From: Acidovorax sp. A79
Lineage (GTDB): Bacteria > Pseudomonadota > Gammaproteobacteria > Burkholderiales > Burkholderiaceae_C
Assembly (NCBI RefSeq): GCF_041154505.1
Contig: NZ_AP028672.1
Location: forward strand, 3,760,501-3,824,500
Reading direction: 5' to 3'
Length of the DNA stretch: 64,000 nucleotides
Shown: positions 42,776 through 47,086 of the stretch, in pieces
Position numbering within the stretch: position 1 is the first letter of the stretch
Layout: every line of letters starts with the position of its first letter
The notes under the pieces: model-generated
Databases searched by the model: none
What the model was told of the DNA's origin: nothing
The model's input: only the letters and a program-made list of their open reading frames with translations
Made by a program: the position numbers and the translations under genes

Positions 42776-43213
42776 ATGACCGACGCCCTGCACATCGTCT
42801 GCCCGCACTGCCACACCACCAACCGCGTGCAAGGCGCCGACCTGGCCAGCGCGCCCGACTGCGGCAAATGCCACCAGCCCCTGTTCGCGGGCGCGCCGCT
42901 TGCGCTCGACGCCGACACTTTTGATCGCCATGTGGGCCGAAGCCACATCCCGGTGCTGGTCGATTTCTGGGCGCCGTGGTGCGGGCCATGCCGGCAAATG
43001 GCCCCGGCGTTCGCGCAGGCCGCCCGCGAGCTGGAGCCGCGCGTGCGCCTGGCCAAGCTCGACACCGAAGAGCACCAGGCGATCGCGGCGCGCTATGCGA
43101 TCCGCAGCATTCCGACCATGATCCTCTTCCAGCAGGGGCGCGAGGTGGCGCGCATCTCGGGGGCGCTCGGCGCGGCGGACATCGTGCGCTGGGTGCGGAC
43201 GGCGGCGGGCTAA
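42776..43213 (+). CDS. trxC: Thioredoxin 2
   Basis: 145 residues. An N-terminal zinc finger (CPHC at about 9-12 and CGKC at about 29-32) precedes a thioredoxin fold with the active site WCGPC and the cis-Pro loop IRSIPTMILF. Zinc-bearing thioredoxin 2 is induced by oxidative and metal stress in other Proteobacteria. The stop overlaps a small GGGCT-A6-AGCCC hairpin facing the convergent DoxX gene. Confidence 0.93.
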   Translation: MTDALHIVCPHCHTTNRVQGADLASAPDCGKCHQPLFAGAPLALDADTFDRHVGRSHIPVLVDFWAPWCGPCRQMAPAFAQAARELEPRVRLAKLDTEEHQAIAARYAIRSIPTMILFQQGREVARISGALGAADIVRWVRTAAG

Positions 43214-43227
43214 AAAAAGCCCACGCG

Positions 43228-43701
43228 TCAGCGAATTCCGAGCGCCCGGTCGAGCGACACCTTGCCCGCGCCGCGCCCCGCCAGGTACAGCAGCAACCCC
43301 GCCCACGACAGGTGCGTGGGCCAGGCATCGGGGTAGACAAACACCTGGATGACCAGCGTCATGCCGAGCAAGGCCAGTGCGGACAGGCGCGTGCACAGGC
43401 CCAACACCAGAAGGACAGGGAACACATGTTCGGCCACGGTGGCCATCTGCGCAGCCAGCTCCGGCGCGATCAGGGGCAGCCGGTACTCCTCGCGGAAGAG
43501 CGCATGGGCGCTGTCGGAGAGGGTGAACCAGCCCTCGACCTTGGTGCGCGCCGACCGCCAGAAGATGCCCGCCACCGCCACCCGGTTGACCAGGGCCAGC
43601 AGGCCGTGCGGGGTGAGGCGGGCGGCGGCATCGGCCAGCCGTGCCAGCAGCACGCGGGGGCCCTTGGCGGGGGCGGTGGGGAAGTGGGTGGTTGTTGCCA
43701 T
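43228..43701 (-). CDS. DoxX family membrane protein (BufD/GigT position)
   Basis: 157-residue integral membrane protein with about four helices. The DoxX features are [19 protein letters not shown] near residue 45 and [20 protein letters not shown]. It is the fourth gene of a run peptide-MNIO-DUF2063-DoxX, spaced 9 bp after the DUF2063 gene. In bufferin operons of Caulobacter and in the gigPABT operon of Cupriavidus metallidurans a DoxX protein occupies this position. Its role in metal handling or redox chemistry is unproven. Confidence 0.86.
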
Positions 43702-43710
43702 GGGGGCTCC

Positions 43711-44478
43711 TCAGCCTGTCTGTGAAGGGGGCTGGACCAGGGCGCCCGCGTCCAGCAGGGCGCCCATCAGCGCGGCAAGATCGGTGGCGGGGTCGGTGGC
43801 CAGTGCGCAGGTGGCGGCAGCCTCCAGGGGCAGGCCCCCGGCACAGGCGTCCAGCAGGGCCATCCCCGCACGCGATAGGGGGCGCCATGCCACTTCGGCC
43901 CGGGGCCGGGTGAGCAGGCCGCCATCACCCACCCAGGCCAGGTGCGTGGGGATGTCCAGGCCATCGCGGTGCCTTTGCCACAGGGCGTAGGCGGGGTGTT
44001 CGTCGCACCAGGGCCAGCGCGCTGCGGGGTGCGGCCGCAGCCGCATGCCGGGCAGCGCACCGGGCGCTTGCCGGGCCCACCAGCCACGGTCCACGGCGGT
44101 GGCATCCGCCGCCAGGTGGCATTCGGTCCAGCAGCGGTCCAGGCGCGCCACTGCGGGCAGGTAGGGCAGCCCGGCGGCCGGTTCGAACCCGGCCAGAAAA
44201 CCGCCAAACCCCGCGCCGTAGTCCATCAGCAGCCCGTCACGGGGCGGCCGCGCGCGGGCATACACCCCCGCTGCCGCGCGGAACCAGTCTTCGCCCACCA
44301 GCTGGCACACCGTGGGGTAGCTGGCCTGCAGGGCGTCGATGCAGCCCTTGAGCACGGTGTTGCGGTACACGGCAAAGCCGGGCTGGGCCTCCAGTGCCGC
44401 TGACCACGCGGTGGCCGGGGCACGGCCGGTGCCGAGCAGGGCGGCCGAGAAACCGTCCTGAAATTCGGTCAGCTGCAT
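43711..44478 (-). CDS. DUF2063 MNIO partner protein (BufC/GigB/HvfC-like)
   Basis: 255 residues. The conserved N-terminal helical domain (LTEFQDGFSAALL, then FAVYRNTVLKGCIDALQASY and PTVCQLVGEDWFRAAAGVY) defines the DUF2063 family, once labelled putative DNA-binding but now known as the recognition partner of MNIO enzymes, presenting the precursor peptide. Its start overlaps the MNIO stop by 10 bp. The C-terminal half is a variable second domain. Confidence 0.88.
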   Translation of the reverse strand: MQLTEFQDGFSAALLGTGRAPATAWSAALEAQPGFAVYRNTVLKGCIDALQASYPTVCQLVGEDWFRAAAGVYARARPPRDGLLMDYGAGFGGFLAGFEPAAGLPYLPAVARLDRCWTECHLAADATAVDRGWWARQAPGALPGMRLRPHPAARWPWCDEHPAYALWQRHRDGLDIPTHLAWVGDGGLLTRPRAEVAWRPLSRAGMALLDACAGGLPLEAAATCALATDPATDLAALMGALLDAGALVQPPSQTG

Positions 44479-45314
44479 GCGGCCTCCCCGGCGTGCGCGG
44501 CCATGAGTGCGTGGTGGGCCTGGTCGCGCTCGCCCAGCAGTTCACTGAAGCCGGGCAGGTTGCCATCGCGCTCGATGAGGGTGGGGATGGGACCTGTGCG
44601 CTCGATCACGCGTTGGTACAGCGCCCACACGGCGGGGGCCACCGGGGCGTCGTGGCTGTCGATGAGCAAGGCGTTGCCATGCACCGGGTCGGCGTGGTGG
44701 CCCGCCAGGTGGATCTCGGCCACGGCGTGCAGAGGGAACGCCTCCAGGTACGCCTGCGCGCAAAAGCCCAGGTTGCTCGCGCTGACATGGACGTTGTTCA
44801 CGTCCAGCAGCAGGCCGCAGCCGGTGCGGCGCACCAGCTCGGCCAGGAATTCGGTTTCGGCCCAGTCGTGGCCGTCGATGTGCAGGTAGTGCGTGGGATT
44901 CTCGATGGCGATGGGCCGCTGCAGCACGTCCTGCGTGCGGGCGATGTTGCCAGCGATGCGGTGCAGCGCCGCGTGCGTGCGGGGAAACGGCAGCAGGTCG
45001 GGCAGGTACTGCCCGCGCCAGCGGGACCACGCCAGGTGTTCGGACACCAGGACGGGTTCCACGCGCCGCGCCAGTGCGGCCAGGCGGGCCAGGTGCGCTG
45101 TGTCGGGCGGTTCATCGGCAGCGAGCGACAGGGACACGCCATGCAGCGCCACGGGGTGGCGCGCGCGGATGGCTTCCAGCCAGGCCAGGCGCGGGCCGCC
45201 GTCGGCCAGGTAGTTCTCGGGGTGCACCTCCCACCACAGGCCGGGGGCGGTGCACCGCAGCGCCTCGTCGTAGTGCAGGGGCTTGAGGCCCAGGCCAGCG
45301 GTGGGAAGCGCCAT
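44469..45314 (-). CDS. MNIO-family (DUF692) peptide-modifying enzyme (BufB/GigA-like)
   Basis: 281-residue TIM-barrel multinuclear non-heme iron oxidase. Family motifs are LKPLHYDEAL, WWEVHPENYL, LHGVSLSLA, VSEHLAWSRW, IENPTHYL, LLLDVNNVHVSASN, EIHLAGHH and LIDSHDAPV; the His, Glu, Asp and Asn residues in these form the iron site in characterised MNIOs. These enzymes convert Cys residues of a precursor into oxazolone/thioamide or thiooxazole-type groups that bind copper. The putative precursor gene lies 4 bp upstream. Together they form a RiPP-like maturation unit. Confidence 0.9.
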   Translation of the reverse strand: MALPTAGLGLKPLHYDEALRCTAPGLWWEVHPENYLADGGPRLAWLEAIRARHPVALHGVSLSLAADEPPDTAHLARLAALARRVEPVLVSEHLAWSRWRGQYLPDLLPFPRTHAALHRIAGNIARTQDVLQRPIAIENPTHYLHIDGHDWAETEFLAELVRRTGCGLLLDVNNVHVSASNLGFCAQAYLEAFPLHAVAEIHLAGHHADPVHGNALLIDSHDAPVAPAVWALYQRVIERTGPIPTLIERDGNLPGFSELLGERDQAHHALMAAHAGEAACS

Positions 45315-45318
45315 GGCC

Positions 45319-45606
45319 TCAGGCCTTGGCGGGTGTCAGCGAACCCATGCCCTTGGGCGTCTTGATCGATGCGCAGGTGCCCGCGGGCACGAACTTCCAG
45401 GCGTTGCCCTGGTAGTCCATCTTCGAGGTGCCGGCGCAGGTGGTGCCGGGGCCGGCGGCGCAATCGTTCTTTCCGGCCATCGAGACGCCGTAGCACTTCT
45501 CCATGGCGGGCTTGGCGCCGTCCATCGGGGCGGTCTGGGCGATGGCGGCGCCAGAGGCCAGGGCGGCAAGGGCCAGGGCGCCGAGGCTGAGGGTGCGTGT
45601 GGTCAT
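45319..45606 (-). CDS. DUF2282 bufferin-type precursor peptide (BufA1/GigP-like)
   Basis: 95 residues. A Sec signal peptide ([20 protein letters not shown], cleavage near residue 23) is followed by a short mature peptide with four cysteines at 38, 49, 57 and 78. The pattern [14 protein letters not shown]...TTCAG...VPAGTC matches DUF2282 bufferin-1 peptides. In Caulobacter such peptides are modified on Cys by an MNIO and exported to bind excess copper. A GGAG ribosome-binding site precedes the ATG at 45606. The gene is transcribed from a SigF-type promoter at 45690-45715. Confidence 0.9.
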
Positions 45607-45689
45607 GGTGGGATCTCCAAGGGTTGAGGGTTGCATCCGACCGGGGCGCTGCACGAAGGTGGATTCCAGCTGCCCGATCTGCGTTGTAA

Positions 45690-45715
45690 TTCGCGCAGTG
45701 CGGCGGGCCGGTTAC
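45690..45715 (-). promoter_or_regulatory. SigF-type promoter of the bufferin operon
   Basis: On the minus strand GTAACC (45710-45715), a 16-base spacer and CGAA (45690-45693). This is the -35/-10 pattern described for the Caulobacter SigF regulon. It lies 84 bp upstream of the precursor-peptide ATG. Confidence 0.8.
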
Positions 45716-45768
45716 GGTGCTGCGCAAAAAAATGCGGTGGCAGTGCAAGAAAATTTTTTGCGGTGCCT

Positions 45769-45794
45769 GTAACCCGTTGGCCCCGGCATACGAA
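45769..45794 (+). promoter_or_regulatory. SigF-type promoter of the sigma factor gene
   Basis: Plus-strand GTAACC (45769-45774), a 16-base spacer and CGAA (45791-45794), 20 bp upstream of the sigma ATG. It is the divergent partner of the site at 45690-45715. Between the two lies an AT-rich inverted repeat (GCAAAAAAAT at 45724-45733, AATTTTTTGC at 45752-45761). Confidence 0.8.
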
Positions 45795-45813
45795 TTGCCT
45801 GCAGGGAGACGCC

Positions 45814-46458
45814 ATGGAGATTGTGGAAGAGCGCCTGCGCGGTTTGCTGCTGCAGGGGCTGGATGCCGATGCAGCCGCTTACCAGCGCTTTCTGAAGGAG
45901 CTGAGCGCGCACCTGCGCGCCTTCCTGCGCCGCCGCCTGGCGCAGCGGCCCGATGAGGTGGAGGACCTGGTGCAGGAAACACTGCTGGCGGTGCACAACC
46001 AGCGCCACACCTACCGGCCCGAGATGCCGGTGACGGCCTGGGCGCATGCGATTGCGCGCTACAAGCTCATCGACTGGCTGCGTTCGCACGCCGTGAAGGA
46101 AGGGCGCAACGACCCGCTGGACGATGCCAGCGAGCTGTTTGCCAGCAGCGACAGCGAGGCCGCCGAAGCCCGGCGCGACCTGGGGCAGCTGCTGCGCACC
46201 TTGCCGGACAAGCAGCGCCTGCCGATCGAGTACGTGAAGCTGGAAGGTCTGTCGGTGGTCGAGACGGCGCGCCTCACGGGGCTGTCGGAGTCGGCCGTCA
46301 AGGTCGGCGTGCACCGGGGGCTCAAGGCCCTGGCCGCCAGGATCAGGGATATGACTCACGCAAAACAGGGCTTGCGCAAATCGCCCGCCACGGCCGACGG
46401 GTCGTTGGCGCGTCCTGATTTGCGCAAGTCCCAGGAGGAATGGCATGAAAACCGATGA
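45814..46458 (+). CDS. ECF sigma factor, SigF/RpoQ-like
   Basis: 214 residues. Region 2 includes [21 protein letters not shown] and the promoter-melting segment [20 protein letters not shown]; region 4 is [21 protein letters not shown] followed by the [27 protein letters not shown]. It recognises, by inference, GTAACC-N16-CGAA, present before its own gene and before the peptide operon. An unusual C-terminal tail of about 30 residues follows region 4. The anti-sigma NrsF gene overlaps its 3' end by 14 bp. In Caulobacter (SigF) and Cupriavidus (RpoQ) relatives respond to heavy metals. Confidence 0.88.
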
Positions 46459-47086
46459 ATTGATCCACCTGCTGGCCGCTGATGGCGGACCGGTGCGGGC
46501 CACCGCGATAGAGCAACGGTTTGCCGTGGCCGCCGCCGTGGGCATTGCCGGTGCCGGGGTGCTGATGCTGGCCCTGTTCGGCCTGCGCCCCGACCTGCCG
46601 GCGACCCTGGCGCAGCCCATGTTCTGGGGCAAGCTGGTGTTTGCCGCTGCACTGGCCGCCGCCGGGCTGGCGCTGCTGCGCCGCATGGCCCGGCCGGGCA
46701 TGGCGGTGCGGCCTGCGGCGCTGCTGCTGGCGGTGCCGCCGCTGCTGCTGTGGGCCCTGGCCCTGCTGGCCCTGTCGCAGGTGACGGCGGCGGAGCGGGT
46801 GCCGCTCATCCTGGGCAGCACCTGGCGCACCTGTCCGTTCAATATCGCCGCGCTGTCGGTGCCTGCGCTGGCCGCGGGCTTCTGGGCCCTCAGGGGTGCC
46901 GCACCCACGCGCCTGGCCTGGACGGGCGCGGGTGCCGGCCTGCTCGCGGGCGCGCTGGGCGCGCTGGTGTATGCCCTGCATTGCCCCGAGATGGCCGCGC
47001 CGTTCCTGGCGGTCTGGTACCTGGCGGGCATGGCCATCCCGACGGCGCTGGGGGCCGTGCTGGGGCCGCGCCTGCTGCGCTGGTAG
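46445..47086 (+). CDS. NrsF-like (DUF1109) membrane anti-sigma factor
   Basis: 213 residues with six predicted transmembrane helices after a short cytoplasmic N-terminus ([18 protein letters not shown]). Two cysteines, Cys130 in WRTCPFN and Cys180 in ALHCPEM, occur at positions matching the pair required for metal sensing in Caulobacter NrsF. It should hold the ECF sigma factor at the membrane until metal or oxidant alters these thiols. Overlap with the sigma gene points to coupled synthesis. Confidence 0.88.

What the first reader, a model, noticed from the sequence alone, without database searches (positions are those of the whole stretch)
43228..47086. Bufferin/gig-type copper-peptide operon wired to a SigF-NrsF metal switch
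Seen: a 95-residue secreted peptide with four Cys (DUF2282 pattern EKCYGV...KNDC), a complete MNIO (DUF692) enzyme, its DUF2063 partner and a DoxX protein in one operon. Divergent from them are an ECF sigma factor and a DUF1109 anti-sigma. Known: this matches the Caulobacter bufferin operon and the Cupriavidus gigPABT operon, in which Cys residues of the peptide are oxidised to copper-chelating groups. Inference: this strain makes a periplasmic bufferin against copper or gold. The exact modification of this peptide (four Cys, with MDYQGNAWK between the last two) is not known.
Basis: partly seen in the sequence, partly recalled or inferred. Interest (0 to 1): 0.85.

Follow-up and report, generated by a model that had tools for sequence, protein, structure and literature searches.

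The report
Acidovorax bufferin operon with SigF-NrsF switch
This is an ordinary Acidovorax copy of a known bacterial gene set that makes a small modified copper-binding peptide under a dedicated sigma-factor switch; its promoters and one more likely target gene can be read from the DNA, but the system itself is already described.

Summary
It is a Buf1-type bufferin (gig) cluster of an Acidovorax sp.; the same arrangement is published for Caulobacter, Sinorhizobium meliloti and Cupriavidus metallidurans.

I added a promoter test. The published SigF site GTAACC-N16-CGAA occurs exactly four times in the 5.87 Mb genome (no more than a reversed-pattern control, so position, not number, is the evidence). 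Two copies lie in the 207-bp gap, one facing the peptide gene and one facing the sigma gene; a third lies about 60 bp before msrP, which is followed by msrQ. So the Caulobacter SigF regulon can be read from sequence here. The pair is exact in 44 of 49 related loci; the msrP site is exact in 27 of 28 Acidovorax msrP genes. C. metallidurans gig-rpoQ carries the exact pair too, although a paper found no evidence for RpoQ-dependent initiation there.

Copper protection is the best-supported role, by analogy; gold is unproven, and related switches also answer oxidants. Real, well interpreted, new member of a known kind, low interest.

The parts
43228..43701 (-). DoxX-family membrane protein, last gene of the bufferin operon
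   Evidence: PF07681 64 bits; NCBIfam HvfX family 45.9 bits, below its cut-off of 80; present in 49 of 49 related loci
43711..44478 (-). BufC-type DUF2063 partner protein
   Evidence: PF09836 75.9 bits; no NCBIfam match; 49 of 49 related loci
44469..45314 (-). BufB, MNIO (DUF692) bufferin maturase
   Evidence: PF05114 324.8 bits; NCBIfam MNIO_BufB 359.7 bits, cut-off 310; H58, H93, E138, D171, H202, D219, H221, E248 identical to MbnB 7dz9 in the alignment
45319..45606 (-). BufA1, DUF2282 precursor peptide, 95 aa, Cys 38, 49, 57, 78
   Evidence: PF10048 91.3 bits; four Cys aligned in 6 of 6 sequences
45690..45715 (-). SigF-type promoter site GTAACC-N16-CGAA of the bufferin operon
   Evidence: exact match; conserved in relatives
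45769..45794 (+). SigF-type promoter site GTAACC-N16-CGAA of sigF-nrsF (self-activation predicted)
   Evidence: exact match; conserved in relatives
45814..46458 (+). ECF sigma factor, SigF/ECF16 type
   Evidence: PF04542 and PF08281 above cut-off; NF009188 301.2 bits, cut-off 250
46445..47086 (+). NrsF (DUF1109) anti-sigma factor with Cys130 and Cys180
   Evidence: PF06532 237.8 bits; NCBIfam NrsF equivalog 142.7 bits, below its cut-off of 300; Cys positions

Best explanation
A complete Buf1 bufferin cluster under a self-amplifying SigF-NrsF switch. NrsF, a membrane protein with two conserved Cys, holds SigF inactive; periplasmic copper (or another thiol-reactive insult) disturbs those Cys and frees SigF. 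SigF then transcribes bufABC-doxX, its own sigF-nrsF operon and, elsewhere in the genome, msrP(Q). BufB with BufC oxidises the two central Cys of BufA (Cys49, Cys57) to 5-thiooxazoles, Cys38-Cys78 form a disulphide, and the peptide, exported by Sec, chelates copper in the periplasm while MsrPQ repairs oxidised methionines. Shown here: genes, order, conserved residues, promoter sites and their conservation. Inferred from characterised relatives: transcription, signal, modification, export, copper binding. The role of DoxX is unknown.
For: Family models. MNIO residues identical to MbnB (their role as metal ligands is recalled). Published SigF motif (PMC3511200) exact before bufA and before sigF. 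Pair at no more than one mismatch per site in 47 of 49 relatives, both exact in 44; box columns 96-100% conserved, most spacer columns variable. Pair exact in 25 of 25 full-length NrsF loci from 30 Acidovorax genomes. msrP site exact in 27 of 28 Acidovorax genomes with msrP, reversed-pattern control 0 of 28; MsrP and MsrQ above cut-off. The same regulon (bufferin genes, sigF, nrsF, MsrPQ) is copper-induced in Caulobacter and sigF::Tn5 is copper-sensitive. In S. meliloti RpoE7 activates the divergent operon and appears to activate its own.
Against: No expression, mass or copper data for this strain. The number of exact sites genome-wide (4) does not exceed the reversed-pattern control (6); only their positions and conservation speak. 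In C. metallidurans the contribution of Gig to copper resistance is small, rpoQ deletion raised gig expression, and rpoQ-rsqA is reported to depend on RpoD; another paper cites no effect of the cluster on copper resistance there. S. meliloti rpoE7 and its target did not respond to H2O2, Cd or chromate. Caulobacter sigF is not strongly self-activated under Cr or Cd. The msrP site persists in 2 of 3 genomes without NrsF, so it alone does not prove SigF control.
Confidence: 0.85

Rival explanations
1. The switch is mainly an oxidant (HOCl or thiol-oxidation) sensor; copper is only one trigger, and the bufferin and MsrPQ together guard envelope proteins against oxidation.
For: The Brucella ECF16 system drives an HOCl-induced msr operon; sigF/nrsF with yedYZ and mrpX detoxify hypochlorite in perchlorate reducers; msrP carries the site in Acidovorax; in G012 the same switch stands beside a cytochrome b561 and an MsrP-like oxidoreductase, with no MNIO gene in the genome.
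Against: Caulobacter SigF responds to Cr and Cd in a manner the authors call independent of oxidative stress and to copper in all tested conditions; the divergent payload here is a metal-binding peptide system.
Confidence: 0.3
2. The peptide is mainly for another metal (gold, silver, cadmium, chromate).
For: gig is gold-induced in C. metallidurans and Legionella; the Caulobacter regulon is induced by Cr and Cd.
Against: Caulobacter sigF mutants are not sensitive to Cr or Cd but are sensitive to Cu; [quoted passage not shown]
Confidence: 0.08
3. The cluster is expressed from housekeeping promoters and the SigF-type sites are leftovers.
For: The C. metallidurans paper assigns rpoQ-rsqA to RpoD and found no promoter upstream of gig.
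Against: Boxes are kept while spacers change in 47 of 49 loci, and the pair is kept in C. metallidurans and a Pseudomonas plasmid.
Confidence: 0.05

Closest known systems
Caulobacter SigF-NrsF regulon with bufferin operon CC3254-CC3257
   Same: Same six genes; promoter motif GTAACC-N16-CGAA; YedY/MsrP as a further target; two conserved NrsF Cys
   Different: Caulobacter has a second DUF2282-DUF692-DUF2063 set (CC2905-CC2907); this genome has one DUF2282 and one MNIO gene
Cupriavidus metallidurans gigPABT-rpoQ-rsqA
   Same: Same divergent layout; BufB 68.2% identical over 94% of the query; GigP 94 aa with 4 Cys; exact promoter pair in its DNA
   Different: On the chromid; the paper found no promoter upstream of gig, assigns rpoQ-rsqA to RpoD and has no evidence of RpoQ-dependent initiation
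Sinorhizobium meliloti RpoE7-EcfR7 with SMb20527-SMb20530
   Same: Divergent DUF692/DUF2063 operon activated by RpoE7, which appears to activate itself; the listed promoter sequences on both sides contain GTAAC-N17-CGAA by my reading
   Different: Inducer not found there; no msrP target seen in the passages I read
Brucella BcrS-AbcS and perchlorate-reducer SigF-NrsF systems
   Same: ECF16-type sigma with NrsF-family anti-sigma, related promoter motif, Msr genes as targets
   Different: No bufferin operon in the passages read; inducer or role is hypochlorous acid/hypochlorite

Membership tests
Buf1 bufferin cluster | DUF2282 precursor with four conserved Cys | tested here: met
   PF10048 91.3 bits; four Cys aligned in 6 of 6 sequences
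Buf1 bufferin cluster | BufB-type MNIO next to the precursor | tested here: met
   NF050167 359.7 bits, cut-off 310
Buf1 bufferin cluster | DUF2063 partner and DoxX in the operon | tested here: met
   PF09836 and PF07681 above cut-off
Buf1 bufferin cluster | Sec signal peptide on the precursor | tested here: inconclusive
   hydrophobic N-terminus ending AIAQ seen by eye; no signal-peptide predictor was run
Buf1 bufferin cluster | thiooxazoles on the two central Cys, outer Cys disulphide, copper binding | not testable with these tools
   family statement in PMC12452194
BufA2 (Buf2) bufferin | NCBIfam BufA2 model above cut-off | tested here: not met
   20.6 bits against 60; 4 Cys rather than 6 or 12
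ECF16 SigF-NrsF system | NrsF/DUF1109 anti-sigma with two conserved Cys beside an ECF sigma gene | tested here: met
   PF06532 237.8 bits; Cys130 and Cys180; note that the NCBIfam NrsF equivalog scores 142.7, under its cut-off of 300
ECF16 SigF-NrsF system | GTAACC-N16-CGAA promoters at targets | tested here: met
ECF16 SigF-NrsF system | release of sigma from NrsF by a thiol-reactive signal | not testable with these tools
   shown for chromium in Caulobacter (PMC3511200)

The most novel reading that the evidence does not exclude
The SigF-NrsF divergent promoter pair is an exchangeable module in this family: switch and sites stay while the divergent payload changes (bufferin operon in Acidovorax; cytochrome b561 plus an MsrP-like oxidoreductase in G012), with msrP as a distant target that keeps its site even in two Acidovorax genomes without the switch (G055, G058), where another sigma factor would have to read it or the switch was lost recently.
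Probability: 0.35. Interest if true: 0.4.

Novelty: new member of a known kind. Interest (0 to 1): 0.22.

Why it matters
It shows that a Caulobacter-type SigF regulon (bufferin, switch, MsrPQ) can be read from promoter sites in a betaproteobacterial genus, and it gives an exact, testable promoter pair for C. metallidurans gig-rpoQ, where RpoQ control has been assumed but not shown. The bufferin itself is one more copy of a widespread family.

Tried and rejected
BufA2 membership rejected on score. No solved structure resembles the peptide: two LIM-domain chains at E 0.18 and 0.2 only. The DUF2063 protein has no PDB match by phmmer at E 0.01. The remaining exact SigF-type site in the genome (L003) was seen only through an ORF list; I saw nothing relevant and did not pursue it. 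A first tally of msrP sites (13 of 25 and 1 of 3, reversed-pattern control 2 of 28) was wrong because minus-strand loci had not been turned round; one search replaces it (25 of 25 and 2 of 3, control 0 of 28). In the family-wide sample only 2 of 30 msrP loci have the exact site (G000, G003) and one has a one-mismatch site (G008, which lacks NrsF); a one-mismatch site in L074 lies inside the gene on the locus minus strand. So the msrP link belongs to Acidovorax and near kin, not to the family; of 5 NrsF-bearing genomes in that sample, 3 (G009, G012, G025) lack it. My first peptide pattern missed the peptide in 13 of 49 loci; tblastn found it in 12 of those 13. The genes beside NrsF in G009 were not resolved: the three ORFs I tested there gave unrelated or no families. 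A paper search with 'bufferin' as word start returned 'buffering' papers and was replaced. Six long ORFs elsewhere in the window were scanned only to orient myself; no tRNA genes were found in the window. No structure prediction, homologous-protein search or Rfam search was run.
Full report
What is there. The window lies in an Acidovorax genome: the nearest named record is Acidovorax sp. sif1233, whose BufB is 100% identical. The genome held has 5,872,218 bases in 2 contigs. In NCBIfam the MNIO protein passes the bufferin maturase model (359.7 against 310 bits); the peptide fails the BufA2 model (20.6 against 60), which fits its being Buf1/DUF2282; NrsF and DoxX fall below the cut-offs of their NCBIfam equivalogs (142.7 of 300; 45.9 of 80). 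The genome holds one DUF2282 and one MNIO gene.

Peptide and enzyme. The 95-aa peptide has Cys at 38, 49, 57 and 78; all four align in the window, C. metallidurans, a Pseudomonas plasmid, a Variovorax plasmid, Asticcacaulis and a distant metagenome-assembled genome (6 of 6 sequences aligned). PMC12452194 (passages seen) states that in Buf1 the central Cys are modified and the first and last form a disulphide; PMC12668002 (passages seen) describes 5-thiooxazoles for MNIO-PME1 clusters, with 4 Da lost per Lys-Cys motif in fontiphorin. So Cys49 and Cys57 are the predicted targets. In the alignment of the window's MNIO to MbnB (7dz9), H58, H93, E138, D171, H202, D219, H221 and E248 are identical; their role as metal ligands is recalled.

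Switch and promoters. NrsF has Cys130 and Cys180, the counterparts by position and context of C131 and C181 of Caulobacter NrsF, whose substitution raises SigF-dependent expression and lets SigF accumulate in the soluble fraction (PMC3511200, passages seen). That paper gives the SigF site as GTAACC-N16-CGAA. Exact matches in the whole genome number 4, the reversed pattern 6, so the count is not above chance; the positions are. Two of the 4 lie in the 207-bp gap between bufA and sigF, one facing each gene (window 45690-45715 minus, 45769-45794 plus). Of 49 related loci, 47 have the divergent pair at no more than one mismatch per site and 44 have both exact; the two without are L049, which starts at the MNIO gene, and L054 (45% identical). 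Box columns are 96-100% conserved while most spacer columns vary. Of 30 Acidovorax genomes drawn evenly, 25 have NrsF, and all 25 full-length loci carry the exact pair; a further weak partial hit (L122) does not. The two sets may share species and are not independent.

A likely third target. One more exact site lies about 60 bp before a gene for MsrP (486.5 bits, cut-off 207), followed by MsrQ (179.5 bits, cut-off 130). MsrP was found in 28 of 30 Acidovorax genomes; the exact site precedes it in 27 of these 28: 25 of 25 with NrsF and 2 of 3 without; the reversed-pattern control gives 0 of 28. In twelve Acidovorax genomes scanned whole, exact sites number 2 to 8 per genome, reversed-pattern controls 3 to 17; in each of the seven with NrsF the pair and the msrP site are among them. 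In Caulobacter the SigF regulon likewise comprises two DUF692 clusters, sigF-nrsF and MsrPQ, all induced by copper, and sigF::Tn5 is copper-sensitive (PMC8224329, passages seen). Across the family the msrP site is rare: 2 of 30 exact.

Against too narrow a reading. Of four other family genomes with NrsF (G003, G009, G012, G025), three lack the msrP site and two (G009, G012) have no MNIO gene. In G012 the same switch, with exact paired sites, stands beside a cytochrome b561 and an MsrP-like molybdopterin oxidoreductase (the latter scores 76.6 against the MsrP cut-off of 207), resembling the hypochlorite-defence sets of perchlorate reducers (PMC4623255, passages seen). Brucella's ECF16 system drives an HOCl-induced operon (PMC8315932, passages seen). 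So the signal may be thiol damage in general. Gold protection is unproven. In C. metallidurans the effect of Gig on copper resistance is small.

Comparison. Divergent layout and sites on both sides are published for S. meliloti RpoE7, which appears to activate itself (PMC6180224, passages seen). For C. metallidurans the paper reports no promoter found upstream of gig, assigns rpoQ-rsqA to RpoD and has no evidence of RpoQ initiation, while assuming RpoQ control (PMC10304878, passages seen); its DNA carries the exact site on both sides. A search for papers with both Acidovorax and DUF2282 gave 0; one for at least two of ECF16, msrP and bufferin listed 9, of which by title only the Brucella paper concerns such a switch. 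Both searches cover only the open library held here. The founding bufferin paper (Leprevost 2024) was not held and is known to me only through the papers that cite it.

Verdict. A new member of a known kind.

Noticed in passing
L060 1415-1440 (G000:C1:4310651-4310676): Exact SigF-type site about 60 bp before msrP-msrQ, exact in 27 of 28 Acidovorax genomes with msrP; its spacer is more conserved than those of the buf promoters, which may mean a second protein binds there.
   Followed up: partly
L146 (G055), L140 (G058): Two Acidovorax genomes with no NrsF, no close SigF (best match 26-30% identity) and no MNIO gene still keep the exact msrP site.
   Followed up: partly
L056 2476-2561 (C. metallidurans CH34): Exact SigF-type sites facing gigP and rpoQ, where no RpoQ promoter is reported.
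   Followed up: yes
L057 (Pseudomonas sp. p1(2021b) plasmid, NZ_CP083747.1): Bufferin operon and nrsF with exact paired sites on a plasmid typed as conjugative, but no sigF found there by tblastn.
   Followed up: partly
L058 (Variovorax paradoxus plasmid, NZ_CP138516.1): Bufferin operon with an exact site facing it, but no sigF or nrsF match and no opposite site in the fetched stretch.
   Followed up: no
L059 (Asticcacaulis excentricus pASTEX01): Two DUF692 operons back to back, sigF-nrsF at the end of one; paired sites with CGTA in place of CGAA.
   Followed up: no
L154 1658-4405 (G012): SigF-NrsF divergent from cytochrome b561 and an MsrP-like molybdopterin oxidoreductase; no MNIO gene in that genome.
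   Followed up: partly
L094-L096 (G003:C1:3808595-3809204): NrsF matched in three separate pieces, so the gene is probably broken or misread there; the exact promoter pair is present.
   Followed up: no
window 42776-43213: TrxC-type thioredoxin with zinc ribbon, convergent with doxX; a match lies within the fetched stretch in 42 of 49 related loci.
   Followed up: no
window 45716-45768: A- and T-rich tracts between the two divergent -35 boxes, possibly UP-like; weakly conserved.
   Followed up: no
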